Part shown: piece after piece, positions 18,763 to 60,438 of the stretch
How positions within the stretch are numbered: the stretch's first letter is position 1
Layout of the letters: each line of letters begins with the position of its first letter
Source: Ferrimonas lipolytica
Lineage (GTDB): Bacteria > Pseudomonadota > Gammaproteobacteria > Enterobacterales > Shewanellaceae
DNA length: 64,000 nucleotides
Reading direction: 5' to 3'
Assembly (NCBI RefSeq): GCF_012295575.1
Contig: NZ_CP051180.1
Coordinates: 3,844,001-3,908,000 of the forward strand
Program-made: the position numbers and the translations under genes
Notes under the pieces: model-generated
Database searches by the model: none
Told to the model about the DNA's origin: nothing
Seen by the model: only the letters and a program-made list of their open reading frames with translations

Positions 18763-19031
18763 GGCTGTGTCACAGTCAAGTGTTGAGGTTTATATCAAGC
18801 CTTCGGCTCTATCGGTTGCAGTACTCTTAAGGGGGTATGTCGCCGTGGCGACGGCATATTCTTGTATGCATTAGCGGGGAGCTTCGCCACCTCTGGAATC
18901 CGCTTTGTCTTAGGTCACAGTTAAAAGCGGCAGCAGATCAACGACGGTACTGCTTTACCCTTTGTATCAAAACTTGCCTAGCCGGTGCTTTAACAGCATT
19001 GGAAAGAACAACACTTAGTTGGTACACAGCC
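18763..19031 (+). mobile_element. MITE-like repeat, copy A
   Basis: 269-bp non-coding element, one of four copies here (others at 53315, 57064, 60148). The left end GGCTGTGTCACAGT and the right end, read on the other strand as GGCTGTGTACCAACT, are imperfect terminal inverted repeats. Flanks are a perfect 8-bp direct repeat, TTTTTTAT at 18755-18762 and 19032-19039, which fits a target-site duplication made in the secA terminator T-tract. Compared with copies C and D it lacks about 22 bp around the internal GCAGTCC/GGACTGC hairpin. No transposase gene; the short open frames inside show no protein signature I recognise. Confidence 0.85.
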
Positions 19032-19056
19032 TTTTTTATCGCTGGAGAACTGGCCG

Positions 19057-19068
19057 TTATTGCAATAA
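19057..19068. repeat. 12-bp perfect palindrome upstream of mutT-like gene
   Basis: TTATTGCAATAA lies 42 bp before the GTG start at 19110, between the right end of repeat copy A and the gene. It could be an operator or part of a promoter region; nothing else in the window identifies a cognate regulator. Confidence 0.3.
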
Positions 19069-19109
19069 TGTACGCTGCAAAGATCCTTGTTCCCCAAAGA
19101 GGTTAGGCC

Positions 19110-19496
19110 GTGAAAGTAATCAATGTCGCGATAGGTTTAGTATTGCATGATGACAAAGTACTGGTTGCTCTAAGGCAGCAGAATCAACACCAGGGTGGCT
19201 TGTGGGAATATCCAGGTGGCAAGGTGGAATTGAACGAAACCTTTGATGAGGCGCTTATTAGGGAGCTTGCTGAGGAGGTTGACGTACATGCTACTGCTGC
19301 AGAGCTGTTTTGGCAGACTCAGCACGACTACGGCGACCGTATTATCAACTTAAAGGCGTTTAAGGTGATCAAGTGGCATGGAACTGCAGTAAGCAAAGAG
19401 GGCAACCAGACCCAATGGGTTGCCCTTGACCAACTTATGGCGTTGCCGATGCCGGCGGCGAATCAGCCGTTAAATCTTCAGCTGGCTTCGGCATAA
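19110..19496 (+). CDS. mutT: MutT-like Nudix hydrolase
   Basis: 128 aa, length of E. coli MutT (8-oxo-dGTPase, clears oxidised guanine nucleotides). The Nudix box starts at GGKVELNETFDEALIRELAEEVDV and fits Gx5Ex7REUxEExGU except that the penultimate Gly is Asp. N-terminal NVAIGLVLHDDKVLVALRQQ also matches the MutT type. The start is GTG at 19110 after AGAGG; no ATG gives full length. The 3' end overlaps the convergent pglL-like gene by 62 bp. The MutT rather than generic Nudix name rests on size and on the usual secA/yacG neighbourhood. Confidence 0.8.
   Translation: MKVINVAIGLVLHDDKVLVALRQQNQHQGGLWEYPGGKVELNETFDEALIRELAEEVDVHATAAELFWQTQHDYGDRIINLKAFKVIKWHGTAVSKEGNQTQWVALDQLMALPMPAANQPLNLQLASA
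19400..19427 (-). terminator. Hairpin inside mutT 3' end, likely terminator of the pil-pglL transcript
   Basis: Stem GGGCAACC / GGTTGCCC with a 10-base loop, located just after the pglL-like stop codon on the - strand and followed there by TCTTTGCTT. It lies within mutT coding sequence. The T-tract is imperfect, so termination efficiency is uncertain. Confidence 0.5.
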
Positions 19497-21102
19497 ATTG
19501 CTTAGATTTAGGGAAAAGGTAGGCTGCTTGAGCAAGGATAGTGGCAGCCTTGATGTTATCTTTCATCGCGAGATTAGCGTGATACCACAGCAGATAAGCA
19601 CCGACTGATGGGCGAACAGTCGCTTCCTCTTCCATCATGATATCGACCATTTTTAGTGCTTCTGGGTCTTGGCTTCGGAGCAAGGCAGTACCAAGCTGCA
19701 TATTGATCAACTTCGTCTGCAGAAATGGATTAACGACCTGCTGTAGATATTCATGTTTAGCGCTTTTAACGTAATCATGAATTAGTGAGGTAGTGTGCAG
19801 ATTGGTTAGCATTAAAAAGCAGGTTGCAACTACGCCGAGCCCAATAAAAAATTTGGGTAAAATCTCTAATTTGTTTTTGAACCGTTTTGCTGTAATTGAT
19901 GTTGTTGGCACTGCGGCGATGATCAGTAGCGTTAATAACGCCAGATGCGTGGCGGAATGATAAAGCGGATATTCGGTTTGAGTGTGAAGAATAATAGGGA
20001 TGGTGCTAATCCACATCGCCTTATTAAACAAATTGCCCCTACGCCAGACTGCAATGGAGAAGAAAAGCGCGAATAGGATAATGGCAAGTACCGGAATAGC
20101 ACCACCTTCAACCCACCAGAAAAGCAATTCGTTATGTGGATGAGTGGTTGACGTAGTCAACATTGGCACGGAACTGTCCTGCTGATATAGCTGCGCTAGG
20201 CGTTCGGTGTAGACCTTACTGAAGGAGCCGATACCATGCCCAAGTACTGGCTTTTCAGTAATAAGCTGCAGTGACTGTCCGTAAAGAGTGGTGCGATAGC
20301 CGGGGTTACTTAGGCCTTGTCGACCTTCAGTGTCGAGGGTGCTTTGTAACAGTGGCGCTAATACGGCACCGAGGATAAGTGCAAAGACGATTTTAATGGC
20401 GTTGTTGCGATTCTTTAGCAGGCAAAGCATTGCCACAGTTATTGCAATGGCTGCCAAAACCCCAGTACGGGACATAATGAGGATAGAAACGCAGGCAATA
20501 AGCGCCATGCAGGCTAGCAGTACCAACCTTATCGCAGGCTTAGCATTGTGATGTAACCAGATGGCCAATGCTAATGCGGTGGAAAGGAGGCTGGAGACCA
20601 CATTAGGCTGATAAAAACTACCAACGGGGCGGTGGTTACGAATGCCAATAAACCAGTCAGGTTGTAGGAATTGCGCAAGGCATATCAGTGCTTGAATCAT
20701 CGAGCCGATAACAACCAACCACAAGGTGTTATCTAGCGCAGACTTACAGCGGATTTGAGTGATTGCAATGGCGAGCAATAGCCAAGCGATTAACCCACAG
20801 GCACGGGCGCTAGCCTCACCCACCCAGGGTTGCGAAGACCAGCAATAGGGCAACAGCAATAAGCCGATAACAGTGGCCAGTCCGGTCAGTATCGGGCTCC
20901 AGTGGATCTGTTCATTTTGGATTATTTTGCTAAATCCTGTGGCACAGATCAGGGCAATGGAGATCCAGACCATATTATTGTTGGCAACAGATAAGCCCGA
21001 ACCACCGGCATTGGGCTGAAAGTAGTGCATCGAGAACAGAAACAAACTGCCGCAGAAAAACACCATCGCCTTATTCGCGTAACCATCCTTGGCTAGATTC
21101 AA
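19435..21102 (-). CDS. PglL/TfpO-type O-oligosaccharyltransferase (O-antigen ligase family)
   Basis: 555 aa with about ten to twelve hydrophobic segments, a large periplasmic loop containing GHGIGSFSKVY and TTHPHNELLFWWVEGG (the conserved His-containing signature of the Wzy_C/PglL superfamily), and a hydrophilic C-terminal region with TPR-like helices. Family members transfer a lipid-linked glycan to protein serine/threonine in the periplasm, or to lipid A core (WaaL). Its position at the end of the pilA-pilB-pilC-pilD-coaE-zapD-yacG series points to pilin as substrate. The TTG at 21102, 5 bp after yacG, is the longest start; an ATG at 21066 is the alternative and keeps the first membrane helix. 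Confidence 0.8.
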   Translation of the reverse strand: MNLAKDGYANKAMVFFCGSLFLFSMHYFQPNAGGSGLSVANNNMVWISIALICATGFSKIIQNEQIHWSPILTGLATVIGLLLLPYCWSSQPWVGEASARACGLIAWLLLAIAITQIRCKSALDNTLWLVVIGSMIQALICLAQFLQPDWFIGIRNHRPVGSFYQPNVVSSLLSTALALAIWLHHNAKPAIRLVLLACMALIACVSILIMSRTGVLAAIAITVAMLCLLKNRNNAIKIVFALILGAVLAPLLQSTLDTEGRQGLSNPGYRTTLYGQSLQLITEKPVLGHGIGSFSKVYTERLAQLYQQDSSVPMLTTSTTHPHNELLFWWVEGGAIPVLAIILFALFFSIAVWRRGNLFNKAMWISTIPIILHTQTEYPLYHSATHLALLTLLIIAAVPTTSITAKRFKNKLEILPKFFIGLGVVATCFLMLTNLHTTSLIHDYVKSAKHEYLQQVVNPFLQTKLINMQLGTALLRSQDPEALKMVDIMMEEEATVRPSVGAYLLWYHANLAMKDNIKAATILAQAAYLFPKSKQFMPKPAEDLTADSPPASATP

Positions 21103-21107
21103 TGGCT

Positions 21108-21317
21108 TTACTCTTGGTCGTCGTTTAGAAAGAAATCCGGTTCGCTAATATCAAACTCATCTGGAAGTTCAATCTTGCCGGGAATAGCGTGCCGCTCTTC
21201 GGCCCATTCGCCTAAATCGATAAGTTTGCAGCGTTCACTGCAAAATGGGCGGAATGTGGCTTGTTCAGTCCATTCAACTGGGGTTGAGCAGGTTGGGCAT
21301 TGTACGGATAGGGTCAT
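21108..21317 (-). CDS. yacG: DNA gyrase inhibitor YacG (zinc finger)
   Basis: 69 aa. Four zinc-binding cysteines are visible, CPTC near the N-terminus and [16 protein letters not shown], which is the family signature. YacG binds GyrB and blocks DNA binding by gyrase in E. coli. The start at 21317 overlaps the zapD stop (ATGA); the in-frame upstream extension lies in zapD. Same coaE-zapD-yacG order as E. coli. Confidence 0.93.
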
Positions 21318-22063
21318 TGTTGTTCCATGGATAAACACAGTTGCAGTGGTAAGTTACGATGATCGGCTTTGCCGGTGTCGTTATTAACCAGATGAATAGT
21401 AAAACGGTTGCGGTGGGCGCTGATTGCTGGATAGACCCCATGTTCCTGCTTGATGCGCAAACGCAGCAGGTCAATAGTCTTCTCAGAAGCGGCTTGATAG
21501 CTTCCAGCCATTGCAATGGAGTCTTGCCATTGGCTACTGCCACGCAGTATCGCCAGTAGCTGCTCGATACTGGCGGTAAATGGCGTGAGCAGCGCCAGCC
21601 ATTGCTGAGCTTGCTGTTGTCGCCATTCTAGCGGACGAGCTAACCAAAAGTGCAGCTGTGGCAGATCAAAGCTACCGCAACCGCCAGGAATCGTTAACCG
21701 TTGCCTGACCGCTGCTAAAAAGCGATCGGCTTTCAACTCTGAGGTGGGCTTAGTGAGTTTATACAGCTGTTGTTGCCAGCGTTTAAAATCGTTGGCTAAT
21801 AGATCCAGTTGTTGCTGATCGACGTTGGGGTATTGGCGCCAGCGCTCAATATTTGAGAGTTGTCTATCAATATCTTTAAGTAACTCTGAGCGCAGATCCG
21901 CTCTATCGATAAGCTCCATTAATTCAAACAAGCAGTGAAAAAATGCCAGTTCGCCATGGGGCAATTGAAATTGCTGATGTGAGTTAACTTGATTAAAAAC
22001 CGCTTCAACCCGCAAGTAACTGCGGACTTTTTCGTTAAGCGGTTGTTCGAACAGCAGCCACAT
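21314..22063 (-). CDS. zapD: Cell division protein ZapD (YacF)
   Basis: 249 aa, close to E. coli ZapD (247). Starts with [19 protein letters not shown] and contains the conserved [23 protein letters not shown] block. Cytoplasmic protein that bundles FtsZ filaments and strengthens the Z ring. Lies 4 bp downstream of coaE and overlaps yacG. Confidence 0.95.
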
Positions 22064-22067
22064 GGGG

Positions 22068-22670
22068 TTATTTCTCGGTAAGACTGAGGTAATACTGGTG
22101 AAGCTTTACTACTTGATGCTGTAAGTCGCAAAGCTGAGCACTATTGTCGATGATATCGTCCGCTTTAGCTAGGCGGCTCGGGCGATCAATTTGGCTGGCA
22201 ATGATCTTTTTTACCAGCTCGGGGTTATTGTTGTCTCGGGCAATGGTACGTTTGAGCTGTGTTTGTTCATCAACATCAACCACTAAAATACGATCAACCA
22301 GCTGGTGCATGTCGCCCTCGAGCAGCAATGGCACCACTACTACCACATAAGCAGAGGCAGCCTGCTGGCACTGAACTAACATCTCGGCGCGGATCATAGG
22401 GTGGGTTAATCGATTAAGCCACTGTCGCTGCTCAGGTTGGTTAAAAACCAGCTCACGCAGCTGTGCTCGGTCAAGTTGACCATCTGCTGTTAATACCTTG
22501 GTGCCGAAATGTTCAGTGATGGCAGCAAGCCCATCACTGCCTTTGGCTACGACATGACGCGCAATCACATCGGTATCGACAATGGTTACCCCTAAGTCCG
22601 CAAAGCGGTCACTTACCTGAGTTTTACCTGCGCCGATACCACCGGTTAGGCCGACGAGCAGTTTGTTCAT
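22068..22670 (-). CDS. coaE: Dephospho-CoA kinase CoaE
   Basis: Last step of coenzyme A synthesis, phosphorylating the ribose 3'-OH of dephospho-CoA. 200 aa. P-loop GLTGGIGAGKT at about 8-18, then DTDVIARHVV and the lid segment. Overlaps the end of pilD by 4 bp, so it is translated from the pil transcript. Confidence 0.96.
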   Translation of the reverse strand: MNKLLVGLTGGIGAGKTQVSDRFADLGVTIVDTDVIARHVVAKGSDGLAAITEHFGTKVLTADGQLDRAQLRELVFNQPEQRQWLNRLTHPMIRAEMLVQCQQAASAYVVVVVPLLLEGDMHQLVDRILVVDVDEQTQLKRTIARDNNNPELVKKIIASQIDRPSRLAKADDIIDNSAQLCDLQHQVVKLHQYYLSLTEK

Positions 22671-23548
22671 AAGCCAACCACGCTATGCAGATACCAGTTA
22701 ACCAACTCTGGGCCGTAAAATAGGTAACTTAATCCGCCAATAATAATCCATGGTCCAAACGGCATCGGCTTACCTTGGTCAAGTTTGCTGGTTACGGTTA
22801 GAGCAATTCCAACAACAGCACCGCCGATGGATGAAATCAGAATAATCGGTAATAGTGCCTGCCAGCCAAACCAGGCGCCGAACAAGGCTAATAGCTTAAA
22901 GTCGCCATATCCCATGCCCTCTTTGCCAGTGAGTAGTTTAAAGCCTTGAAAGATAGACCAGAGCGATAGGTAACCAAATGCAGCCCCTAATACCGCATCA
23001 GCGAGTGTTACAAAGCCCGTGTCTATATTGAGCAACAACCCCAGCCAAAGCAGTGGCAAGGTGATGCTGTCTGGAAGCAACATCTTGTCAAAGTCGATGG
23101 CAGCAGCAGCAATCAAGCCAAAGCACAGTAACCAAGTACCTAGAAACAGTCCCGTTGGGCCAAGTTTCGCGGCAACAGCAACACACAGCAGTGCCGTGAG
23201 AAGTTCTACTAACGGGTAGCGAATCGAGATTGGGCTATGGCAATTGTGGCATTTGCCCCGTTGCGATAGGTAGCTGATTAAGGGGATGTTACGCCAAGCT
23301 GGTATGTCAGCTTGGCATTTAGGGCAATTACTACCTGGAGTGATGAGATTGTATCGCTCTGGCCATTCATCTTTGGCAGGGGTGGTTGCAAGCCCTTCGG
23401 CGCACTCTTGTAGCCATTGTCGCTCCATCATAATAGGTAAACGATGGATAACCACATTGAGAAAACTGCCAATAAGCAAACTAACGGTGCCAATTACACC
23501 TAAAAAGAGCCAATTGTATTGAGCAAAAAGCTCTAGCCACATCGCCAT
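22667..23548 (-). CDS. pilD: Prepilin peptidase / N-methyltransferase PilD
   Basis: 293 aa inner-membrane aspartyl protease that removes the leader of type IV pilins and methylates the new N-terminus. The cytoplasmic N-terminal domain has the two zinc pairs CPKC and CHNC. The catalytic Asp residues are in DFDKMLLPD and GMGYGDFKLLALFG. About eight hydrophobic helices. It will also process type II secretion pseudopilins if these exist elsewhere in the genome. Confidence 0.96.
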   Translation of the reverse strand: MAMWLELFAQYNWLFLGVIGTVSLLIGSFLNVVIHRLPIMMERQWLQECAEGLATTPAKDEWPERYNLITPGSNCPKCQADIPAWRNIPLISYLSQRGKCHNCHSPISIRYPLVELLTALLCVAVAAKLGPTGLFLGTWLLCFGLIAAAAIDFDKMLLPDSITLPLLWLGLLLNIDTGFVTLADAVLGAAFGYLSLWSIFQGFKLLTGKEGMGYGDFKLLALFGAWFGWQALLPIILISSIGGAVVGIALTVTSKLDQGKPMPFGPWIIIGGLSYLFYGPELVNWYLHSVVGL

Positions 23549-23581
23549 TACTACCGCCGATTAAATGATTTATGCGGGATG

Positions 23582-24865
23582 TTAACCGACTACGTTACCT
23601 AATTCGAATATCGGCAGGTACATAGCGATAATAAGGCCGCCGACCAATACTCCCAGGACAACCATTAATAGCGGTTCGATCAAGGTTGATAAGCCATCAA
23701 CAGCATCATCTACTTCCATTTCAAATATGTTAGCGACCTTATTGAGCATATCGTCTAAGGCACCAGACTCTTCACCAATCATCACCATCTGAGTAACCAT
23801 ATCGGGGAACAGGTTTACGGTACGCATGGCAATGTTCATTTGTAAGCCGGAGACTACTTCCTCTTTCATTTTGAGGATCCCTTTGCGGTAGACCGCATTA
23901 CCCGAGGCACCAGCAGAGGCGTCTAAACCTTCTACTAGAGGGACACCAGCAGCAAAGGTAGTCGCCAGAGTTCGGGCAAACTTTGCCATTGCCCCTTTAT
24001 GTAAAATATTACCAACCACTGGAATTTTTAATAGCACCACATCGACCTTATCGCGAAACTCTGGCGAGTTATGATAGGCCCGTTTGTAGAGCCATACGAT
24101 GATCATTGCTACCCCAAGGAAGTAATACCAACTGCTTTGAATGAATTTGGATAAACCGATAACCATCTGGGTAAAGGCAGGCAGCTCAGCACCAAAGTCG
24201 TTAAATATCGCCTCAAATTGAGGTACCACAAATATCAATAGGATTAAGGTAACGATAATGGCAACGGTAACCACCGCAACCGGATAAAACATCGCCTTTT
24301 TAATTTTGGATTTGAGCGCTTCCGACTTTTCTCGATAGGTGGCGATACGGTCAAATACGCTGTCCAAGGTACCGGACTGTTCACCGGCCGAAACTAAGTC
24401 ACAGTAAAGCTCATCAAAGTGCTCGCGGTGGGGCCGCAATGCTTGCGCAACTGGAGTGCCCGCTTGGATCTCTTCTAAAATCTTGCCCAGCAGTTTCCGC
24501 ATCGCTTCATTTTCATGGCCTTTGGCGACCATATCGAGGCCGGTAACCAGTGGTACACCGGCCATCAACATGGTTGCTATCTGGCGGGTAACTACGGCGA
24601 TATCTTTAGAGGTGATCTTAGATTTTTTTTGAAATAGCGAACGGGGTTTGCGGGCGACCTTGAGCGGAGTGACGCCTTGGGAGCGTAATATCGCTTTAAC
24701 TTCATTAATGGAGGCGCCGCGCAGCTCGCCTTTGAGCGGATTGCCCTTTTGGTTTTTGCCAGACCATACGAAATCGCTGACTTCGGCTTTCTTCGACTTA
24801 TCCAGTTTTGCTTTTTTTTGTTGCCGTTGATCGGCACTGCTGCGCGCCTGAAAAACCTTAGCCAT
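23582..24865 (-). CDS. pilC: Type IV pilus inner-membrane platform protein PilC
   Basis: 427 aa with duplicated T2SSF domains: first at about 90-215 (TRQIATMLMAGVPLVTGLD), second at about 295-415 (ARTLATTFAAGVPLVEGLD), and three membrane helices. Couples the cytoplasmic ATPases to pilin insertion and extraction. The N-terminal 40 residues are highly basic. Lies between pilB and pilD with short gaps. Confidence 0.95.
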   Translation of the reverse strand: MAKVFQARSSADQRQQKKAKLDKSKKAEVSDFVWSGKNQKGNPLKGELRGASINEVKAILRSQGVTPLKVARKPRSLFQKKSKITSKDIAVVTRQIATMLMAGVPLVTGLDMVAKGHENEAMRKLLGKILEEIQAGTPVAQALRPHREHFDELYCDLVSAGEQSGTLDSVFDRIATYREKSEALKSKIKKAMFYPVAVVTVAIIVTLILLIFVVPQFEAIFNDFGAELPAFTQMVIGLSKFIQSSWYYFLGVAMIIVWLYKRAYHNSPEFRDKVDVVLLKIPVVGNILHKGAMAKFARTLATTFAAGVPLVEGLDASAGASGNAVYRKGILKMKEEVVSGLQMNIAMRTVNLFPDMVTQMVMIGEESGALDDMLNKVANIFEMEVDDAVDGLSTLIEPLLMVVLGVLVGGLIIAMYLPIFELGNVVG

Positions 24866-24888
24866 CGAGCAAATCCTTATGCTTTATG

Positions 24889-26430: not shown

Positions 26431-26442
26431 CGTGAGATGAAG

Positions 26443-26467
26443 TACAGCTCCTCTTCAAGGAGCTGTA
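26443..26467 (-). terminator. Intercistronic hairpin between pilA and pilB
   Basis: Perfect 10-bp stem TACAGCTCCT / AGGAGCTGTA with a 5-base loop lies 10 bases after the pilA stop and 12 bases before the pilB ATG. On the transcribed strand it is followed by CTTCATC, a poor T-tract, so it more likely acts as a leaky terminator or mRNA-stabilising stem that lets pilin be made in excess over pilBCD. The only GAGGAG near pilB is inside this stem. Confidence 0.65.
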
Positions 26468-26477
26468 CTTTCTACTA

Positions 26478-26897
26478 TCAACTACAATTTTTTGGCTTAA
26501 ATTCAGCTGGGATTGTAGAAGTGCAATCCCAAACACCATCGCCATCTCTAGTTAGAGTGATATTTTTATCTTTAACTAAAGCGTTCACAGTTCCTGAATC
26601 TAGCTTACAATCTAACGAGTTTGCTGCGGCACTTGTTGTACTAGGAGCAGCGACTGTAATTGTGCAGTAGGTTCCACTAATAGTGTTTCCAAGAGTGGTG
26701 GTTACAGTTTCACCCTCATTTACTGCAATTTCATATGCAGTTTTATATGGAGTGACTTCAGCAAGCGCAGCATTAACTTGCGACTTCACTGTGTAATCCT
26801 GATAAGCAGGAATCGCGATTGCTGCCAAAATACCGATAATGGCTACCACGATCATCAATTCAATCAGGGTAAAGCCTTGTTGTAAGTTCCGTTTCAT
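26478..26897 (-). CDS. pilA: Type IV major pilin PilA
   Basis: 139 aa prepilin. Leader MKRNLQQG is cut before [20 protein letters not shown], with Glu5 of the mature protein present. Four cysteines follow in the globular domain, enough for the D-region disulfide, and the protein ends in KPKNCS, with a serine as last residue right after the final cysteine. The ATG at 26897 follows a GGGAG site; a TTG further up gives seven extra residues and is not plausible. First gene of pilA-pilB-pilC-pilD; a hairpin follows the stop. Confidence 0.95.
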
Positions 26898-50722: not shown

Positions 50723-53308
50723 GTGCCAGCAATCAGTTTATCTCGCCGTTTGATGCTTTTGGTGTTTGTGTTCGCGCTACCAGCCATGGTGGTAGTGTCA
50801 GGACTGTCTTTAATGCAACTGGAATGGCATCTAGATGGTCTAACGAAACAACAACAAAGTGCTAAATTTAACCGTGCTCAGCTCCGGTTGGAGAAGAGCT
50901 TAGCGAACCTGGGTGACCAAACCCAGCAGGTTCGTGCCGCCCTTGAATCTTCCCAAGACGATCTACTGCAGTATTTGCTACGCAATGCTCGGCAACAGGG
51001 TGCGCATCTGATGGTGGTCAATCATTATGGCGAATTGCGGCCGTTGCTCGCGCGTAACCGTCAGGTGGATGGCACCCTAGCGCGGCTTTTAGAGCAGTTG
51101 CAACGCCCCCTAGCCAATGAAACCTACCAGCTCGAACGCAATGGCTTTTTCCAGTTGGAGCAACAGAACTTCTTAGCGGTTATCTTACCGCTGAAACACC
51201 CGCAATGGCGTGCCGTCATGCAGGTAAACAACCTCAGTAATAAACGGGTGCAACTGCTGTCGCAAACCTATGATGAGGTCGTTGGTGCCGCTATCGTCCG
51301 TGCTCCGATGCACTCGAGCGCACCAACCTTACCGATGCTGTTTGGTAAACCGTTGATGCTCGATATTACCTTTAATAGCAAATCGGTCGACTCTTTCGGC
51401 GGCCAGGTGGTCACGCTGTTTGCAATATTCGTTGTGTTGGCGGCGGTGATCTTAATTGGCTTATTCCTGTTACAGCATCACTTTGTGCTTAGCCCGATTC
51501 GCGAAATGTCGAAATTACTGCAGCAATCGGAGCAACATGAGCTGCACCACCCGCTCAAGTTTCCTCGAGTTAATGAGCTGAGCTACATTGCCCAAAACTG
51601 CAACGTCCTGTTGCTGAAAAACCACCATCAACGTCAGCTTCGAGACTCTCTGCTGCGAGCGGTAGATGACGCCGTGGTAGTGGTGGATACTGATACGCGG
51701 GTTGAACTGGTTAACCCAGCGGCAGAACGGTTACTGCGATTAGAGCATGGGCCGGTGCAACGTTGTTCGTTGGTTGATCTGATTACCGATGAAGCCGGCG
51801 AACAGCTAAACGATGCGCTGCAATTGTTGTTTAACTCCAGCCGAGTAAGTCATGATGGCGAAGTGGTGTTGCACCAGAGCCAAGAAACCCTTCGCTACAG
51901 CGTAATGCGCACCCTCGACGGCCAAGGCAATACCTTGGGGGCGGTGATGGTGCTATCAGACTTGACCAATTCGCTGCTGCTCAAACAGCAGTTACGGCAA
52001 CGTTCGCAACGCGACCGCACCACCAATTTGTTTAATCGGCAGGTGTTTGAACAAGCGCTGGAGGAGCTGGGCAACAAACCTGGCCAGCATGCGATCTGTT
52101 ACATGAACCTCAACCGCTTTAAGCTTATCAATGACAGCTGTGGCCATGCCGCTGGCGACCGCATGCTGCTTGATGTTGCAACCGAAATGAGTGCAACGAT
52201 CCGCTCGCAAGATATGCTGGCACGGATTGGTGGGGACGAGTTTGGGTTGATAATGAAAGACAGCTCTGCAATGGAGATCTCCAAGCTATTGAAGGAGCTG
52301 AGCGACCGAGTCCAAGGCATTACTTTGTACTGGGACAGCGGCAGTTACAAGATTGGTATCAGCATCGGGGTGGCATTCTTTAGGGGCGAACAAACCCCCT
52401 ATGAAACCTTTAAAGATGCCGAGATTGCTTGCACCATGACCCGCTCCCAGGGCGGAGAAGGGCAGATCAGCTTCTTTGACTCGCTGGATCAGGATCTGGC
52501 CAATCAGCGTAATGCGCCGCTGTGGGCAATGAGGATTAACGACGCCATCGTCAACGATGACTTGGTGTTGTTCTACCAGCCGATTGAGCCTTGCAACGGC
52601 GATACGCGTGGTAAGCATAAGTTCGAGATCCTATTGCGGATCAAGGAAGAGGATGGCCGCATCATTGCGCCGGGCCAGTTTATTGCTGCCGCTGAACGCT
52701 TTAACTTGATGCCACAGGTCGATAGGGCGGTTATTCGTAAGAGTTTCGAATGGTTGGCTCGCAACCAGCAGTTGTGGGGACGTTTAGTCGTTTCGATTAA
52801 CCTTTCAGGTACCACTCTTAATAGCGATGGTTTGGTGCGCTATGTCGATCAGATGTGCAGCATCTATCGAGTACCAACCCATACGGTCTGTTTTGAAGTT
52901 ACTGAAACCGCAGCGTTGACCAACGAAAACCACGCCTTGGAGATCTTACATGAGCTCCGTCAGCGGGGCTTCTCCTTTGCGTTGGATGATTTTGGCTCTG
53001 GCTTTGCTTCCTATGGCTATCTGCGTCGATTGCCCGTTGACTACGTTAAAATCGATGGCATTTTCGTTAAGAACCTCGCCACCAACAGTAAAGATTACGC
53101 CATTGTGAAATCGATCTATGACGTCTGTGAAGTGATGGGCATTCAGACTGTTGCTGAGTTTGTTGAAGACCAAGAGATCTTGCAGCGTTTGCGCGAAATT
53201 GGCATTACCTATGCTCAAGGCTATGGTATTGCGCGGCCACAGGATCTAGCCACTTACCAATCGGAAGAGAGCGAAGAGGATGCATTACTCGGAGCTCTCG
53301 AAGGGTAA
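50723..53308 (+). CDS. Membrane GGDEF/EAL protein with PAS domain
   Basis: 861 aa from a GTG at 50723. Two membrane helices (about 10-30 and 231-253) flank a periplasmic domain of about 200 residues; then HAMP-like linker, a PAS (about 310-415), GGDEF at 503-507 with an upstream RSQD I-site, and an EAL domain in which EAL is EIL (635-637) with DDFGSGFAS and VKIDGIFVK retained. The cyclase should be active and product-inhibited; phosphodiesterase activity is plausible because the metal-binding Glu and Asp pair are present. Its stop codon overlaps the target duplication of repeat copy B. Confidence 0.9.
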   Translation: MPAISLSRRLMLLVFVFALPAMVVVSGLSLMQLEWHLDGLTKQQQSAKFNRAQLRLEKSLANLGDQTQQVRAALESSQDDLLQYLLRNARQQGAHLMVVNHYGELRPLLARNRQVDGTLARLLEQLQRPLANETYQLERNGFFQLEQQNFLAVILPLKHPQWRAVMQVNNLSNKRVQLLSQTYDEVVGAAIVRAPMHSSAPTLPMLFGKPLMLDITFNSKSVDSFGGQVVTLFAIFVVLAAVILIGLFLLQHHFVLSPIREMSKLLQQSEQHELHHPLKFPRVNELSYIAQNCNVLLLKNHHQRQLRDSLLRAVDDAVVVVDTDTRVELVNPAAERLLRLEHGPVQRCSLVDLITDEAGEQLNDALQLLFNSSRVSHDGEVVLHQSQETLRYSVMRTLDGQGNTLGAVMVLSDLTNSLLLKQQLRQRSQRDRTTNLFNRQVFEQALEELGNKPGQHAICYMNLNRFKLINDSCGHAAGDRMLLDVATEMSATIRSQDMLARIGGDEFGLIMKDSSAMEISKLLKELSDRVQGITLYWDSGSYKIGISIGVAFFRGEQTPYETFKDAEIACTMTRSQGGEGQISFFDSLDQDLANQRNAPLWAMRINDAIVNDDLVLFYQPIEPCNGDTRGKHKFEILLRIKEEDGRIIAPGQFIAAAERFNLMPQVDRAVIRKSFEWLARNQQLWGRLVVSINLSGTTLNSDGLVRYVDQMCSIYRVPTHTVCFEVTETAALTNENHALEILHELRQRGFSFALDDFGSGFASYGYLRRLPVDYVKIDGIFVKNLATNSKDYAIVKSIYDVCEVMGIQTVAEFVEDQEILQRLREIGITYAQGYGIARPQDLATYQSEESEEDALLGALEG

Positions 53309-53314
53309 TTTTTG

Positions 53315-53599
53315 AGCTGTCTACCAGCTAAGTGTTGTTGTTCTTTCTAATACAGTTACAGCTCGGCTAGGCGAGCCCCGATACAAAGGGTTAAGCACTG
53401 CCGTCGTCGATCTTCTGCCGCATTGGAGCAGTTCAGCGAAGCGCTTTGGACTGCGATCTAAGGCAAAGGGGGATTCCAAAGGGGGCGAAGCTCCCCTTTG
53501 GGTGCCGTCGCCACCGCGACATCCTCCCCCCCCCAAAGCACCGAAATCGGTGAAGCCGAAGGCTTAAGGTAAACTTCAACAGCTAACTACGACAGAGCC
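53315..53599 (-). mobile_element. MITE-like repeat, copy B (reverse orientation)
   Basis: 285 bp, reads as the element on the - strand. Ends are degenerate (GGCTCTGT at one end, AGCTGTCT at the other). Flanks AATTTTTG (53307-53314) and AATATTTG (53600-53607) agree at 7 of 8 positions. The internal stem CCAAAGGGG / CCCCTTTGG is 9 bp and better paired than in other copies. The left flank begins inside the stop codon of the GGDEF/EAL gene. Most diverged of the four copies, so probably the oldest. Confidence 0.8.
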
Positions 53600-53610
53600 A
53601 ATATTTGCGG

Positions 53611-54462: not shown

Positions 54463-54694
54463 AACGACTCCTTGTTATTGTCGGCCTCAATGTAGCCAAT
54501 TTATCGCTACCGGAGCAACGCCAAAGCGGCGCTTCAGTTGGGCCACGCTAAACTGATGGGGCGAGTTGTGGATTAATCCCATAGTAAATTTATGGTTAAA
54601 ACTTAACCGTCGCACCTAAGCCTTGGCTTTGCTACAATCGCGCGTCCATTCGCCCCGGCTACCGCCGTGGGGGGACTGAGCCTGAGGAAACCCG

Positions 54695-56995
54695 ATGATC
54701 CAAACCCCTAAAAATAAGCTTTTCAGTTATCCGAAGTATCGTGACGAAAAGCCGGCCCCGTTTTTACCAACCAGCCGCAAAGAGATGCGTAAGCTGGGTT
54801 GGGACAGCTGCGATATTATTGTCGTTACTGGCGATGCCTATGTGGATCATCCCTCCTTTGGTATGGGGATTGTTGGTCGTATGTTGGAAGCGCAAGGCTT
54901 CCGTGTTGGCATCATCGATCAGCCAGACTGGCACAGCAAAGAGGATTTTATGGCGTTGGGTAAACCCAACCTATTCTTTGCGGTTGGCGCTGGCAACATG
55001 GACTCAATGATCAACCATTACACGGCTGATCGTCGCTTGCGTCACGACGATGCCTACACCCCAGATAACCTGCACGGCAAACGGCCCGATCGGGCGGTGG
55101 TGGTTTACACCCAGCGTTGTAAAGAAGCCTACAAAGATGTGCCGGTAACCATCGGTTCTATCGAAGCGAGTTTGCGCCGTATTGCTCATTATGATTATTG
55201 GCAGGACAAGGTTCGTCGCTCCATATTGTTTGATGCCAAAGCGGATCTGTTGATATACGGTAATGCTGAACGACCAATTATTGAGGTGGCACATCGGGCC
55301 GCAGCTGGTGAAAACATCAAGGATATGCATGATATCCGGGGTACCGGCTTCTTAACTAAAGATGCATTGCCAGAATGGTCTGGGCTTGATTCCACCACTT
55401 TGGATAGCCCGGGCAAAATCGACCCTATTCCAAACCCTTACGGTGCCGATGATATGGGCTGTGAGCTGGGCAGTAAGTTTGATAACAGTCCGGCAGAGGG
55501 TGCTATTACGGTGCAGCCACCGAAGCCAAAGCCATGGGATAAGCAGTACATCTTGCTACCGGCCTATGATCAGGTGAAGGCAGATAAGATCCTCTACGCT
55601 CACAGTTCACGAGTGTTCCACCAAGAGACCAATCCCGGTTGTGCGCGGGCGTTAATGCAACGTCATGGTGACCGTTTTGTGTGGTTAACGCCGCCTGCGA
55701 TCCCGCTGGAAACCGACGAGATGGATTGGGTCTTCGGTTTGCCGTATGCGCGGGTACCACACCCGAAATACACCGGAAAGAAGATCCCAGCATATGACAT
55801 GATCAAAACCTCGATCAACATCATGCGTGGCTGTTATGGCGGCTGTACCTTCTGCTCCATTACCGAGCACGAAGGGCGGATCATCCAAAGTCGCTCGCAT
55901 GAATCGATCATCAGTGAGATCGAAGATATTAAAGATAAGGTGCCTGGTTTTACCGGGGTGATCTCCGATCTGGGCGGACCTACAGCCAATATGTATAAGT
56001 TGCGCTGTAAGAGCCCGAAGGCGGAAGCGACTTGTCGTCGTTACAGCTGTATCTACCCAGATATCTGTGGCCACATGGATACCGATCACACCCCAACCAT
56101 CGATCTGTATCGCAAGGCGCGTGCAGTGCCGGGCATTAAGAAGGTGCTTATCGCCTCGGGGGTGCGCTACGACTTAGCGGTGGAAGATCCTCGCTACGTT
56201 AAAGAGCTAGCCAGCCATCACGTTGGCGGTTACTTGAAGATTGCGCCTGAGCACACCGAAGAGGGCCCACTATCGAAGATGATGAAACCGGGTATGGGCA
56301 GTTATCACAAGTTCAAGCAGCTGTTTGATAAGTACTCGAAGGAAGCTGGAAAGAAACAATACTTGATCCCGTACTTCATCTCGGCGCACCCAGGCACCAC
56401 CATCAAAGATATGGCTAACCTAGCGCTGTGGTTGAAAGAGAACGACTTCAAGTTGGACCAGGTCCAGAATTTCTACCCGTCGCCGCTCGCCAATGCCACC
56501 ACTATCTGGCATACCGAGTTCGATTCGTTGCGTAACGTCACCAAGTCTTCGATTAAGGAGAAAGTAGCGGTAGCGAAGGGGGGGCGTGAGCGACGCATCC
56601 ACAAAGCGATTCTGCGCTACCATGATCCCGAGGGCTGGCCAATTGTGCGTGAAGGCTTGAAGAAAGCCGGTTTGGGGAAGTTGATTGGTAACGGACCTAA
56701 TTGCTTAGTTCCTGCTGAAGGCAGCAGTGGCGGCCGTCATGGGGCGCGCTCCGGTGGCAAAGGAAAACCGGCATTAAGTCGGCATACTGGCCTGAAGCAG
56801 TTTGATAAGACCAAACGTGCAGCAGCTGAGTCTAGCCGTGGCGATAAAGGCCGCAGTGATGAACGAGGTGACGGTCGAAAAGGCGATAATCGCTCGGAGC
56901 AGGGGCGAGGCCGGCCGGGACAGAAAGCTAAGTCTCAAGGCAATTGGAATGGCAAACCGGCCAAACCAATCCGGCCTAAACGCGCCAAAGCGTAA
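54695..56995 (+). CDS. ygiQ: YgiQ family radical SAM protein
   Basis: 766 aa. An N-terminal B12-binding-like domain (about 40-200), then the radical SAM core with cluster cysteines C380, C384 and C387 in CYGGCTFC, and a UPF0313 C-terminal region. The last 100 residues are a Gly/Arg/Lys/Ser-rich basic tail typical of the family and suggestive of nucleic-acid contact. Reaction unknown. AGGAAA ribosome site. Confidence 0.95.
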
Positions 56996-57028
56996 ACAGT
57001 TAGAGGTTTCGCACTACCCTACCCCTAG

Positions 57029-57061
57029 GCGAGCCCGGTAGCCACCGCGCTCGCTTTTTTT
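57029..57061 (+). terminator. Intrinsic terminator of ygiQ
   Basis: Outer stem GCGAGC / GCTCGC and inner stem CGGT / ACCG separated by a C-C mismatch, loop AGCC, then seven T residues. The T-tract forms the left flank of repeat copy C. Confidence 0.88.
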
Positions 57062-57063
57062 GG

Positions 57064-57354
57064 GGCTGTGTCGTAGTTAAATGTTGAAGTTGATATCAAG
57101 CCTTCGGCTCTACCTATTGCAGTACTCTTAAGGGGTTATGTTGCGGTAGCGACGGCACATTCTTGTATGCATTAGGGGAGGCTCCGCCCCCTTTGGAGCC
57201 CCCCCTTGCCTTAGGTCGCCGTCCAAAACGCTTCGCTGGACTGCTCCAATGCGGCAGAAGATCAACGGCGGTAGTGCTATCCCCTTGTACCAAAACTAGC
57301 CTAGCCGGTGCTTTAACAGCATTGGAAACAACAACACTTAGTTGGTACGCAGCC
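57064..57354 (+). mobile_element. MITE-like repeat, copy C
   Basis: 291 bp, same length and orientation as copy D. Left end GGCTGTGTCGTAGTT, right end TTGGTACGCAGCC. Flanks TTTTTTGG (57056-57063) and TTTTTTGT (57355-57362) match at 7 of 8. Inserted in the ygiQ terminator tail, upstream of the arsenate genes. Confidence 0.85.
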
Positions 57355-57473
57355 TTTTTTGTGTTTACCGATAGTTGTAGTCAGTGTTTTAGGCCACCCT
57401 CCTTGCTACCGTTTACGGTAGTGATTGTATTTTTTGCCAAAGTGATTTTATTTGTCGATGAAAGCGGCTAAAC

Positions 57474-57487
57474 TTAATATATATCAA
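57474..57487. repeat. Near-palindrome upstream of gapArs
   Basis: TTAATATATATCAA is symmetric except at one position pair. It could be a binding site for an ArsR-like repressor, but AT-rich chance symmetry is as likely. No arsR gene is in the window. Confidence 0.2.
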
Positions 57488-57510
57488 AAAGTGTATGTTT
57501 TATTTTTTCA

Positions 57511-57544
57511 CTTTCATCAAACTGTAATATTTGCATTTGATAGT
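57511..57544 (+). promoter_or_regulatory. Candidate Pho box and promoter of gapArs-arsJ
   Basis: CTTTCATCAAACTGTAAT (57511-57528) matches the Pho-box consensus CTGTCATAAAACTGTCAT at 15 of 18 positions, with both 7-bp half-sites recognisable. GATAGT (57539-57544, 4 of 6 to TATAAT) follows 10 bp later, the distance usual for PhoB-dependent promoters in which the box replaces the -35. The gapArs ATG is 30 bp downstream. Confidence 0.6.
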
Positions 57545-57574
57545 GGCGGCAATTGAACAAGCGAGAGAGCAACG

Positions 57575-58582
57575 ATGACTGTAAAAGTTGGCATTAATGG
57601 CTTTGGCCGGATGGGAAGATTGGTATTGCGTGCGGCCTGGGACTGGCCAGAGTTTGAGTTTGTGCAGATCAACGATCCAGCTGGTAACGCTGAAACAGCT
57701 GCGCATTTACTGACCTTTGACTCTGTTCATGGCCGTTGGGCTTACGACGCCCGTGTCGACGGCGATGGTATCGCTATCGGCGATAAAAAAATTGTGGTTA
57801 CGGCTAACAAAAAATTAGAGCAAACCGATTGGTCAGGTTGTGACATCGTGATTGAGGCTTCTGGTAAATTTAAGACCAAAGAGAAGCTGCAAGCTTACCT
57901 TGATCAAGGCGTTAAGAAGGTCATCGTGACTGCGCCGGTTAAGCAAGCGGGCGTATTGGATGCGGTGTTTGGCGTTAACCACGATTGGTACGACAAATTC
58001 GAGCACGATATTGTGACTGCTGCTTCTTGTACCACCAACTGTCTGGCGCCAGCGGTTAAAGTTATCCACGAGAAGTTAGGCATCAAGCATGGCTCGATGA
58101 CCACCATCCACTCCATCACTAACACCCAGACCATTCTTGATGCACCGCATAAAGATCTTCGTCGCTCTCGCGCCTGTGGTGAAAGCTTGATTCCAACAAC
58201 CACTGGTTCAGCCACGGCCATTACTCATATTTTTCCGGATCTGAAGGGGCGTTTGAATGGCCATGCAGTTCGAGTACCGTTGTGTAATGCTTCGTTAACT
58301 GACTGTGTATTTGAAGTAGAACGCCCAACCTCGGTAGCCGAAGTTAATGCACTGCTGAAAGAGGCATCTGAAGGCGAACTGAAAGGCGTACTTGGTTTTG
58401 AAGAGCGCCCGTTGGTGTCCATCGATTACCGCACTGATCCGCGCAGTTCCATTGTTGATGCACCATCGACCATGGTGGTTAACGACACTCAGGTGAAGAT
58501 GTACCTGTGGTATGACAATGAATGGGGTTATGTTAATCGTACGATGGAGCTAGCCAAGTACGTCTGCGCCCAAGGGTTATAA
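57575..58582 (+). CDS. ArsJ-associated glyceraldehyde-3-phosphate dehydrogenase
   Basis: 335 aa. NAD-binding [10 protein letters not shown], catalytic Cys152 in ASCTTNC, and the typical [11 protein letters not shown] end. The N-terminal half ([30 protein letters not shown]) is of the type found beside arsJ rather than housekeeping GapA. Known role of that type: using arsenate in place of phosphate to make unstable 1-arseno-3-phosphoglycerate, which ArsJ exports. Next gene, 259 bp on, is arsJ. A short distance upstream lies a Pho-box-like promoter. Confidence 0.85.
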
Positions 58583-58841
58583 ACGGCGTTTGTGGAAACC
58601 GTGAGCTGGGGGCGTGGCTAATTCCTTGAGCCCATCATTTGGAGCGGCAAACCCAAGGGCTCGGTGCAAATGGTTGCTAGCATCTTATCGGTTTCCCCTA
58701 CGTTTTGGTAACCATGGCGTAATTCTACGGCGTTTTTGCGGTGTGCTCTAAGCAGCGTTGGCTCAGGCAGCTGCGATTATCGCCTGAGCGCTGCTCCCAA
58801 CCATTTTATTATTACCACTATTTACCGGAAAGAGAGCCACT
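58583..58841 (+). other. gapArs-arsJ intergenic region
   Basis: 259 bp without a recognisable gene. It has a loose inverted repeat (GAGCCC near 58628, GGGCTC near 58657) without a T-run, so no clear terminator separates the two genes. The gap is longer than expected within an operon; arsJ could have a second promoter here. Confidence 0.4.
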
Positions 58842-60080
58842 GTGAACGCCTTTGCTAACCTCAGTCGTGAGCTAAAACAATACCTGTTGGTGACGTTCAA
58901 TTATTGGAACTTCACCCTAACCGATGGTGCCTTGCGCATGTTGGTGGTTCTGCACTTTCATCAGCTTGGTTATACGCCGTTGGCGATTGCGATGCTGTTC
59001 CTGTTTTACGAGATCTTTGGGGTTATCACCAACTTGGTTGGCGGCTATTTGGGGGCCAGGCTGGGGTTGAACAAAACCATGAATGTTGGCCTTGGCATGC
59101 AAGTGTTGGCACTGCTGATGCTGGCGGTGCCTTCATCAATGTTGAGTGTACCCTACGTGATGGCGGCGCAAGCTCTGTCTGGTATCGCTAAAGATCTAAA
59201 CAAGATGAGCGCCAAAAGCGCCATTAAGACGCTGGTTCCTAGCGGCGAGAGCGGCACCCTGTACAAGTGGGTGGCGATTCTCACCGGCTCAAAGAACGCC
59301 CTGAAAGGGGCGGGCTTCTTCCTTGGCGGCTTGTTGCTGATGGCGGTGGGTTTCCAACAATCGATGATTATTATGGCGGCGCTACTGGCGTTGGTATTGG
59401 TACTGAGCGCTCGTTTGCTTGGTAGTGATATTGGTAAGGCTAAAACCAAGCCAAAGTTTACTGAGATTTTCTCCAAATCCGGCAGCGTTAACATTCTATC
59501 GGCGGCGCGTATGTTTCTGTTCGCCGCACGCGATGTGTGGTTTGTGGTGGCGCTACCGGTATTTCTTGGTAGCACCTTCGGCTGGGATCATCTCTGGGTT
59601 GGCGGCTTCTTGGCATTGTGGGTGATTGGCTACGGCATTGTGCAGGGGTTTGCCCCGAAAATCACCGGTACTGGTGCGGCTGGTAAAGCACATACACCGG
59701 ATGGTCGTACAGCCATGCTGTGGGCCGGTGCGCTGGTGATAGTTACTGCAACCGTTGCGTTGGGCATTCACCATCAGTGGCAGCAACAGTTCACCATTGT
59801 TGGCGGGTTAATGTTGTTTGGGGTAGTTTTTGCCATTAACTCCAGTCTGCACTCCTTTCTTATTGTCCATTACGCTGGCGAAGATGGAGTGTCGATGGAT
59901 GTCGGCTTCTATTACATGGCCAATGCCATGGGACGCTTGGTTGGCACAGTCTTATCTGGCTGGGTTTACCAAATGGCTGGCTTGGCGGCGTGTTTGTGGA
60001 TCTCGGTGGCCTTTTTAGCGCTGACAGTACTCATCTCTATTGGCTTACCGCGCAATAAGCGGCTTTCTGCAGTGGCTTAA
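58842..60080 (+). CDS. arsJ: Organoarsenical efflux MFS transporter ArsJ
   Basis: 412 aa with about ten to twelve membrane helices. Recognised from QYLLVTFNYWNFTLTDGALRML and FYEIFGVITNLVGGYLGARLGLN, which are characteristic of ArsJ and not of general MFS pumps. Exports 1-arseno-3-phosphoglycerate, which then breaks down to arsenate outside the cell. The start is GTG at 58842 after GGAAAGAG. Partner enzyme gapArs is directly upstream. No arsC, arsB or arsR is seen nearby. Confidence 0.88.
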   Translation: MNAFANLSRELKQYLLVTFNYWNFTLTDGALRMLVVLHFHQLGYTPLAIAMLFLFYEIFGVITNLVGGYLGARLGLNKTMNVGLGMQVLALLMLAVPSSMLSVPYVMAAQALSGIAKDLNKMSAKSAIKTLVPSGESGTLYKWVAILTGSKNALKGAGFFLGGLLLMAVGFQQSMIIMAALLALVLVLSARLLGSDIGKAKTKPKFTEIFSKSGSVNILSAARMFLFAARDVWFVVALPVFLGSTFGWDHLWVGGFLALWVIGYGIVQGFAPKITGTGAAGKAHTPDGRTAMLWAGALVIVTATVALGIHHQWQQQFTIVGGLMLFGVVFAINSSLHSFLIVHYAGEDGVSMDVGFYYMANAMGRLVGTVLSGWVYQMAGLAACLWISVAFLALTVLISIGLPRNKRLSAVA

Positions 60081-60100
60081 TCGCTAAACTGTAACGTTGA

Positions 60101-60143
60101 AATAAGCAGAGCCGCTGATGATAGGTCAGCGGCTCTGCTTATT
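60101..60143 (+). terminator. Intrinsic terminator of arsJ
   Basis: 18-bp perfect stem AATAAGCAGAGCCGCTGA / TCAGCGGCTCTGCTTATT with a 7-base loop, the longest in the window. Its T-rich tail (TATTTGTT) is the left flank of repeat copy D. Confidence 0.9.
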
Positions 60144-60147
60144 TGTT

Positions 60148-60438
60148 GGCTGTGTCACAGTTAAGTGGTTAGGTTTATATCAAGCCTTCGGCTCTACCGA
60201 TTGCAGAACTCTTAAAGGGTTATGTCGCGGTGGCGACAGCACATTCTTGTATGCATTAAGGGGGAGCTTCGCCCCCTTTGGAACTCCCCTTGCCTTAGAA
60301 CGCAGTCCCAAACGCTTCGCTGGACTGCTTCAATGCGGCAAAAGATCAACAGCGGTAGTGTTATCCCCTTGTATCAAAACGCGCCTAGCCGGTGCTTTAA
60401 CAGCATTGGCAAGAACAACACTTAGTTGCTACACAGCC
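60148..60438 (+). mobile_element. MITE-like repeat, copy D
   Basis: 291 bp. Left end GGCTGTGTCACAGTTAAG; right end TTGCTACACAGCC. Flanks TATTTGTT (60140-60147) and TTTTTGTT (60439-60446) match at 7 of 8. Internal stems: AGCC/GGCT (60183-60193), TGTCGC/GCGACA (60223-60238), AAGGGGG/CCCCCTT (60258-60278), GCAGTCC/GGACTGC (60302-60328). No transposase. Confidence 0.87.

What the first reader, a model, noticed from the sequence alone, without database searches (positions are those of the whole stretch)
18763..60438. A MITE family with 8-bp target duplications, four copies in 42 kb
Copies at 18763-19031, 53315-53599 (reverse), 57064-57354 and 60148-60438 align over nearly their whole length. The ends form imperfect terminal inverted repeats: GGCTGTGT-CACAGT-TAAG against GGCTGTGT-ACCAAC-TAAG, about 19 of 23 matching in the consensus. 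Each copy has an 8-bp direct repeat at its flanks: TTTTTTAT/TTTTTTAT, AATTTTTG/AATATTTG, TTTTTTGG/TTTTTTGT, TATTTGTT/TTTTTGTT. One perfect and three single-mismatch duplications strongly imply transposition. No transposase is encoded, so a parent IS must act in trans; ISL3 and IS1595 families are known to leave 8-bp duplications and are guesses only. I do not recognise this element as a named family.
Basis: partly seen in the sequence, partly recalled or inferred. Interest (0 to 1): 0.78.

Follow-up and report, generated by a model that had tools for sequence, protein, structure and literature searches.

The report
IS1595-type MITE seated in transcription terminators
A short stretch of 'jumping' DNA that cannot move by itself has copied itself roughly 200 times through a marine bacterium's genome, often landing just behind the stop signals of genes, where it should do little damage.

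Summary
The four copies, their 19/23 terminal repeats and their 8-bp duplications are as described. Genome-wide about 214 copies are estimated (380 terminal-repeat matches, 0 in the control). Of 80 near-full-length copies read, 55 have 8-bp flanks at most one base apart; mispaired flanks give 3.2%. Copy A's site is empty in 13 of 13 congeneric genomes. The ends are those of IS1595-family elements: one intact in a congener, and the only one found in this genome, whose transposase is broken.
Two things go beyond the finding. (1) Copies favour the T-tracts of intrinsic terminators: 45 of 80 abut a terminator stem, against 52 of 269 AT-rich intergenic 8-mers; so do 9 of 18 resolvable autonomous IS1595 copies, all in one subgroup (9 of 11). 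(2) The middle carries a hairpin unit shared with repeats of Colwellia and relatives, some of which contain TwoAYGGAY RNA. It is a new MITE of a known kind; the terminator preference is the interesting part.

The parts
18737..18762 (+). intrinsic terminator behind secA (stem 18737-18754) with the left target duplication TTTTTTAT (18755-18762) of copy A
   Evidence: sequence; stem test; terminators without element in 13 relatives
18763..19031 (+). MITE copy A (269 bp), between secA and a NUDIX gene
   Evidence: profile hit 278 bits over model 1-292; genes by Pfam
19032..19039 (+). right target duplication of copy A, TTTTTTAT (8/8)
53307..53314 (+). target duplication of copy B (AATTTTTG)
   Evidence: 7/8 with the other flank
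53315..53599 (-). MITE copy B (285 bp), most diverged of the four (83.8% to consensus), between the 3' ends of two convergent genes; no terminator stem by the test
   Evidence: profile hit 252 bits; identity; ORFs; stem test negative
53600..53607 (+). target duplication of copy B (AATATTTG)
57029..57063 (+). intrinsic terminator (stem 57029-57054, then T-tract) downstream of the radical SAM gene; 57056-57063 is the left duplication TTTTTTGG of copy C
   Evidence: sequence; stem test
57064..57354 (+). MITE copy C (291 bp)
   Evidence: profile hit 333 bits
57355..57362 (+). right target duplication of copy C, TTTTTTGT (7/8)
60104..60147 (+). intrinsic terminator downstream of the MFS gene (stem 60104-60140); 60140-60147 is the left duplication TATTTGTT of copy D
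   Evidence: sequence; stem test; terminators without element behind the orthologous gene in G010 and G009
60148..60438 (+). MITE copy D (291 bp)
   Evidence: profile hit 335 bits; RNA fold z = -3.4
60439..60446 (+). right target duplication of copy D, TTTTTGTT (7/8)
60224..60237 (+). GTCGCGGTGGCGAC hairpin, start of the core unit shared with repeats of G010 and of Colwellia and relatives (in A at 18839-18852, in C at 57140-57153, in B at 53507-53520 on the - strand)
   Evidence: sequence

Best explanation
A non-autonomous DNA transposon (MITE, consensus 292 bp) of the IS1595 family. SHOWN by sequence: the ends resemble the ends of IS1595-family elements, insertion duplicates 8 bp of AT-rich target, copy A's site is empty in congeneric genomes, and no transposase was found in the element. 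INFERRED: an IS1595 transposase acting in trans on the 23-bp ends amplified it to about 200 copies. SHOWN as a statistical preference: more than half of the sampled insertions (45 of 80) begin where the GC-rich stem of an intrinsic terminator ends, so that the duplicated 8 bp is the terminator's T-tract and stem plus T-tract stay intact. INFERRED: the transposase complex prefers the stem/T-tract junction, and such insertions do little harm, so the element accumulated there. INFERRED: the family is now largely a fossil here, because copies average 91% identity to the consensus, many duplications have decayed, and the only IS1595 transposase found in the genome has nine stops.
For: 8-bp flanks: 55 of 80 with at most 1 mismatch, against 3.2% mispaired. 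Ends (23 bases): MITE against the genome's own IS1595 19 (5') and 17 (3'); against the intact congener IS 18 and 17; against an Aeromonas IS1595 end 19 and 19. Own IS: PF12762 28.4 bits, 1,029 bp, flanks TATTAAAA/TATTAAAG. Intact congener IS in G008: 1,023 bp, 315-aa transposase, NF033547 185 bits. Empty sites: 13 of 13 relatives for copy A (the profile finds no element in their loci); 2 of 5 relatives for copy D, the other 3 not comparable. Terminators: 45 of 80 against 52 of 269 AT-rich intergenic 8-mers, Fisher p 6e-10, and 31 of 35 against 15 of 33 when an A5/T5 run is required, p 2e-4; shuffled flanks 3.2 of 80 on average (maximum 7 in 20 shuffles). Autonomous IS1595 copies: 9 of 18 at terminator stems, plus both G008 sites as put together by eye from contig ends.
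Against: The interior of the two IS1595 elements compared shares nothing detectable with the MITE's interior (local score 10 against a shuffled mean of 10.5), so the MITE is not a simple internal deletion of either. TSD decay does not correlate with divergence from the consensus (Spearman -0.08, p 0.50), so the 'one clock' picture is weak. 35 of 80 sites, copy B's among them, have no stem by this test. None of the 7 resolvable IS1595 copies outside the CCCA-type terminal-repeat subgroup, this genome's own copy included, passes the test (L205 looks like a terminator by eye). Five of the nine positive IS copies come from one genome. The control 8-mers overlap one another and come from one 64-kb window, so the p-values are optimistic. 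Selection after random insertion could give part of the enrichment. Copy C's site was not reached in relatives and copy B's was not tried. Searches of this genome and congeners used the family and protein queries named; a strongly diverged parent could be missed.
Confidence: 0.9

Rival explanations
1. Terminator enrichment is survivorship only: the transposase inserts at any AT-rich 8-mer, and copies in genes or promoters were purged, leaving those behind terminators.
For: All four window copies lie between ORFs. A different IS1595 element, ISEc69/Tn7052, inserts experimentally at AT-rich 8-mers, all 23 mapped sites inside genes (PMC7835479, passages read). A large survey finds IS1595 overrepresented between tandem genes and explains it by silent insertion (PMC9208149, passages read).
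Against: Within intergenic DNA the stem is still enriched: 45/80 against 52/269, and 31/35 against 15/33 among A5/T5 8-mers. The stem end peaks at the first base of the duplication (left side: 27 of 80 at offset 0, 0-5 of 80 at offsets of 8 or more). Nine autonomous copies show it too, eight of them with perfect duplications and one with 7/8.
Confidence: 0.3
2. The element is a conserved structured RNA or regulatory 3' element (REP/BIME-like) spread by other means, the flanking 8-mers being terminator T-runs that look alike by chance.
For: The sequence folds better than shuffles (copy D as RNA z -3.4; copy C as DNA z -2.0). Flanks are AT-rich. The core unit has relatives with a variable, paired second hairpin.
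Against: Flank identity is far above that of mispaired flanks of the same family (55/80 against 3.2%); many duplications are not T-runs (TAATTAAT, AATGATTA, ATTGTTAT); copy A's site is empty in relatives; the ends are those of an IS family. No Rfam family matches the window at gathering score.
Confidence: 0.04
3. Mobilised by another family that makes 8-bp duplications (ISL3, IS6, IS256, IS66).
For: These families also duplicate about 8 bp (recalled).
Against: ISL3: 0 of 2 genomes match PF01610. IS1595 elements with similar ends and the same duplication length exist in the same genome and in a congener. IS6, IS256 and IS66 were not searched.
Confidence: 0.03

Closest known systems
   Same: GGCTNTGT...TGTTG ends of 23 bp, 8-bp AT-rich duplication, terminator T-tract sites in one subgroup
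   Different: The MITE is 292 bp, encodes no transposase, and its interior is unrelated to the interior of the two Ferrimonas IS compared
ERIC and Correia elements (high-copy bacterial MITEs)
   Same: Short, without a transposase, tens to hundreds of copies; the review PMC10969869 (passages) gives 30 to 711 ERIC copies per genome and more than 120 Correia copies
   Different: Different ends and parent; 8-bp duplication here (the TA-type duplication of ERIC and Correia is recalled, not looked up)
ISEc69 / Tn7052 (IS1595 family, ends like IS1016C2)
   Same: 8-bp AT-rich duplication (PMC7835479, passages)
   Different: Its 23 mapped insertions were all within genes; its transposase is 217 aa, against 315 aa in G008
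Colwellia repeats holding TwoAYGGAY RNA (RF01731)
   Same: They share the roughly 60-bp GTCGCGGTGGCGAC hairpin unit with the MITE's middle
   Different: TwoAYGGAY itself is not detected in the window, in 8 G010 core loci or in 5 Ferrimonas genomes (its control rang nowhere, so this does not prove absence)

Membership tests
MITE (non-autonomous TIR transposon) | short element without a transposase gene | tested here: met
   269-291 bp in the window; the ORFs of at least 100 aa that overlap copies C and D (57163-57471, 60118-60510) have no Pfam match
MITE (non-autonomous TIR transposon) | terminal inverted repeats | tested here: met
   19/23 in the consensus
MITE (non-autonomous TIR transposon) | target-site duplication of fixed length | tested here: met
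   8 bp; 55 of 80 with at most 1 mismatch; within the 8 the flanks agree in 59-73 of 80, just outside in 31 and 33 of 80
MITE (non-autonomous TIR transposon) | empty sites in relatives | tested here: met
   copy A: 13 of 13 congeners; copy D: 2 of 5, the other 3 not comparable; copies B and C not shown
MITE (non-autonomous TIR transposon) | transposition in trans by a parent transposase | not testable with these tools
   needs an assay; ends resemble IS1595 ends
IS1595 family (as non-autonomous derivative) | parent transposase of the family between similar ends | tested here: met
   G008: NF033547 185 bits, cut-off 75, ends GGCTGTGTTTTAGTTAGCTGTTG / GGCTGTGTCTTATGTAACTGTTG; 18 and 17 of 23 to the MITE
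IS1595 family (as non-autonomous derivative) | 8-bp AT-rich duplication | tested here: met
   66 of 80 left-flank 8-mers hold at least 7 A/T of 8; 8 bp also given for ISEc69 of this family
ISL3 family (considered) | ISL3 transposase present in this genome or in G010 | tested here: not met
   PF01610 0 of 2 genomes; the control search rang in 4 of 14
IS6 / IS256 / IS66 (considered) | transposase with matching ends | not tested
   not searched

The most novel reading that the evidence does not exclude
One branch of IS1595 (ends of the type GGCTNTGTCCCAATTACGTGTTG, and the Ferrimonas relatives) has a transposase that recognises the stem/T-tract junction of intrinsic terminators. Terminators serve it as safe harbours that survive insertion because the T-tract is duplicated. 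This let a 292-bp satellite, which had taken up a hairpin unit from an older repeat family of marine Gammaproteobacteria, reach about 200 copies in one genome.
Probability: 0.5. Interest if true: 0.65.

Novelty: new member of a known kind. Interest (0 to 1): 0.5.

Why it matters
Transposons that seek out harmless sites are few and instructive (Tn7 downstream of glmS is the textbook case, recalled). A DDE transposase of a common IS family that uses the generic intrinsic terminator would help explain how a satellite can reach 1-2% of a genome (about 214 x 290 bp in 4.13 Mb) without killing it. It would also give a simple system to ask whether the signal is the stem, the T-tract, or transcription ending there. 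In print: nine full-text searches bear on this. I saw their listings and opened passages of seven of the listed papers. None of these passages reports terminator targeting by IS1595; PMC9208149 does report IS1595 overrepresented between tandem genes. The library holds open-licence papers only, and the family's founding paper (Siguier 2009) was seen as a reference entry, not read.

Tried and rejected
ISL3 as parent: 0 of 2 genomes. Plasmids carrying the MITE: no match. Viral contigs encoding the transposase: none confirmed. Rfam matches to the MITE: none at gathering score in the window; around copies in L001, L002, L005 and L010 only tRNAs above gathering score and weak matches below it. A first profile mixed copies of both orientations and matched both strands; it was rebuilt from oriented copies and not used for counts. 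MITE as a simple internal deletion of the IS: no interior similarity to two IS. A coding reading of the core ('ATGTCGCGG...'): judged by eye not conserved after the second hairpin; the two ORFs overlapping copies C and D have no Pfam match. Orientation bias of copies to terminators: 28 left, 18 right (one copy in both), not convincing. TSD decay as a clock: no correlation. Transposase survey in the class: 2 of 369 genomes at E 1e-65, this genome one of them; in the order 13 of 295 at E 1e-60, this genome included. Of the 40 loci from the 20-base core scan, 18 from other bacterial groups were dropped by eye because the core does not continue there. In the hairpin test, units without a detectable second hairpin were dropped uncounted. 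Autonomous IS1595 sites: of 34 loci, 14 gave no end pair and 2 repeated a site already counted; 18 were counted; the G008 loci were not in that call because their flanks end at contig edges. In the copy C/D relatives one weak profile match (13.7 bits, L242) was taken as chance. One paper search on Ferrimonas repeats found 0 papers.
Full report
1. The observation. The consensus of 32 copies (30 genomic loci, C and D among them, plus window copies A and B) is 292 bp with 19/23 terminal inverted repeats.

2. More than chance. The window lies at 3,844,001-3,908,000 of a 4.13-Mb genome in one contig. I took 30 loci brought in by whole-element similarity and 60 stretches around terminal-repeat matches (57 chosen at no mismatch, 3 at one). 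With the window they hold 104 distinct hits of at least 30 bits, 80 of them near full length (31, 47 and 2); the 24 partial ones were not used for the flanks. Flanking 8-mers are identical in 27 of 80 and one base apart in 28 of 80. Pairing left flanks with other copies' right flanks gives 0.5% and 2.8%. Agreement is 59-73 of 80 at each of the eight positions and falls to 31 and 33 of 80 just outside, so the duplication is 8 bp.

3. How many. The pattern GGCTGTGTNNCANNTAAGTGTTG with up to two mismatches occurs 202 + 178 times, the backward control 0 + 0. In 31 copies of the loci L001-L030, 55 of 62 ends match it, so about 214 copies are expected; the window density would give about 258. A rough 1.5% of the genome is this element. 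Among 13 congeners only G010 has related sequence at E 0.001, at 71-79% identity (and one 23-base exact piece). Two of its copies, L031 and L032, have the same kind of ends and, by eye, duplications agreeing in 7 of 8. Three contig lengths of G010 (302431, 201332 and 126542) equal those of 'Uncultured Ferrimonas sp. isolate 1028', so the host genus is inferred to be Ferrimonas.

4. Empty sites. The secA end was found in all 13 congeners. By eye, each has a terminator stem and T-run behind secA and no element; the profile finds only this genome's copy in the 14 loci. In G010, the nearest at this locus (80%), the T-tract reads TTTTTTAT once, the very 8-mer that is doubled around copy A. For copy D, G010 and G009 have a bare terminator after the MFS gene; the other three of the five genomes searched have another gene directly downstream. 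Copy C's site was not reached and copy B's was not tried.

5. The parent. The genome has one IS1595-family match (PF12762, 28.4 bits). Around it stand GGCTGTGTCTTAATTAGCTGTTG and GGCTGTGTTTGAGTTAACTGTTG, 1,029 bp apart, flanked by TATTAAAA/TATTAAAG. Its transposase is broken (six TGA, one TAG, two TAA), and no second place was found at E 1e-60 by protein search of this genome. In congener G008 an intact 1,023-bp element occurs at four contig ends. Its 315-aa transposase scores 185 bits to NCBIfam IS1595 (cut-off 75), and its ends are GGCTGTGTTTTAGTTAGCTGTTG / GGCTGTGTCTTATGTAACTGTTG. The junctions read CTTTTTTG; because the copies lie at contig ends the two sites are put together by inference, and both then abut a terminator stem by eye. 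The MITE's ends agree with the genome's own IS1595 at 19 (5') and 17 (3') of 23, with the G008 IS at 18 and 17, and with an Aeromonas-type IS1595 end at 19 and 19, so which branch moved it is open. The interiors of the two Ferrimonas IS share nothing detectable with the MITE. IS1595 elements of Azotobacter and Aeromonas have the same style of ends and, in the three resolved, perfect 8-bp duplications.

6. Where it lands. In the joined pre-insertion sites, a GC-containing stem ends within three bases of the duplicated 8-mer in 45 of 80 (28 on the left, 18 on the right in element orientation, one on both). On the left the count peaks at the first base of the 8-mer (27 of 80) and is 0-5 of 80 at offsets of 8 or more. 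With shuffled flanks the mean is 3.2 of 80. For AT-rich (7 or 8 of 8) intergenic 8-mers of the window it is 52 of 269, and for all AT-rich 8-mers of the window 14% of 1,548. If the 8-mer must hold A5 or T5, it is 31 of 35 against 15 of 33; without such a run 14 of 45. The control positions overlap, so the Fisher values (6e-10, 2e-4) are indicative. Because the T-tract is what gets duplicated, stem plus T-run remain together on one side and the terminator should still work (inference).

7. The parent's relatives. I resolved both ends and the duplication for 18 autonomous-type IS1595 copies out of 34 loci (14 without an end pair, 2 repeats). Nine of 18 abut a terminator stem by the same test. 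All nine have CCCA-type ends (9 of 11 in that subgroup; five of the nine from one genome, G176). None of the other seven does, this genome's own IS included (L205 looks like one by eye, with an AT-rich stem). So the preference looks like a property of a branch of the family, not of all of it. ISEc69/Tn7052 of the same family was shown by experiment to make 8-bp AT-rich duplications with all 23 mapped insertions in genes (PMC7835479, passages). A large survey reports IS1595 overrepresented between tandem genes and reads it as silent insertion (PMC9208149, passages), which fits either targeting or survivorship.

8. The middle of the element. About positions 75-215 carry GTCGCGGTGGCGACGGCAC and a second hairpin. 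In G010 this unit also occurs in places where the profile does not reach the IS1595 ends. An exact 20-base scan of genome contigs brought 40 stretches. In 18, from other bacterial groups, the core does not continue; the other 22 are Ferrimonas, Colwellia, Cognaticolwellia, Pseudocolwellia, Pseudoalteromonas and Thalassotalea. In Colwellia and relatives the unit often stands at both ends, inverted, of repeats mostly about 490-560 bp long. Some contain, on the other strand, TwoAYGGAY RNA: of five loci two are at or above Rfam's gathering score of 43 bits (51.5 and 43.7), one is below (39.1) and two have none; the same two places come up in 2 of 6 further loci. In 58 such units the second hairpin varies in sequence while staying paired, and its loop is complementary to the bases just downstream (mean run 4.24; 3.52 when reassigned, maximum 3.83 in 200 reassignments), which suggests a pseudoknot; units without a detectable second hairpin were dropped. 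The eight G010 units do not show this (2.4 against 2.5). The simplest reading is that an IS1595 satellite took up a unit of an older repeat family; the direction of the capture is inferred.

9. Age. Copies average 91.1% to the consensus (79.6-96.8%) and 1.34 mismatches per 8-bp duplication, but the two do not correlate. With a broken parent this suggests an old burst, not current movement; it is not proved.

10. Verdict. As a MITE it is an ordinary kind of thing. The terminator preference, shared with an autonomous branch of IS1595, is the part a specialist would want to test; it was not seen in the searches listed under Why it matters.

Noticed in passing
L137 1509-2015, L139 1504-1997, L059 5780-6273 (Colwellia and relatives): Repeats of about 500 bp bounded by inverted GTCGCGGTGGCGAC hairpin units with a variable but paired second hairpin whose loop complements the sequence just downstream; these contain TwoAYGGAY RNA (RF01731) on the opposite strand.
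   Followed up: partly
L009 1297-1849: One MITE inserted inside an older copy of the same family: the outer copy matches the profile at 31-231 and 240-281, with a 7/8 duplication (TTTATCTA/TTTATTTA) at the junction.
   Followed up: partly
L005 64-1441: Six tRNA genes of equal score (68.2 bits) at spacings of 213 or 293 bases, followed by a MITE copy.
   Followed up: no
L026 1501-1957: A full MITE followed directly by the 3' part (129-292) of another copy, suggesting recombination or insertion between copies.
   Followed up: no
L066 around 3970, L070 around 7540 and L059 around 5760: Short strings of the type GGGGTCAG(A)GTAAATT / GGTACACTTTAAA stand just upstream of several Colwellia units; they resemble a REP-type repeat (the likeness is recalled).
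   Followed up: no
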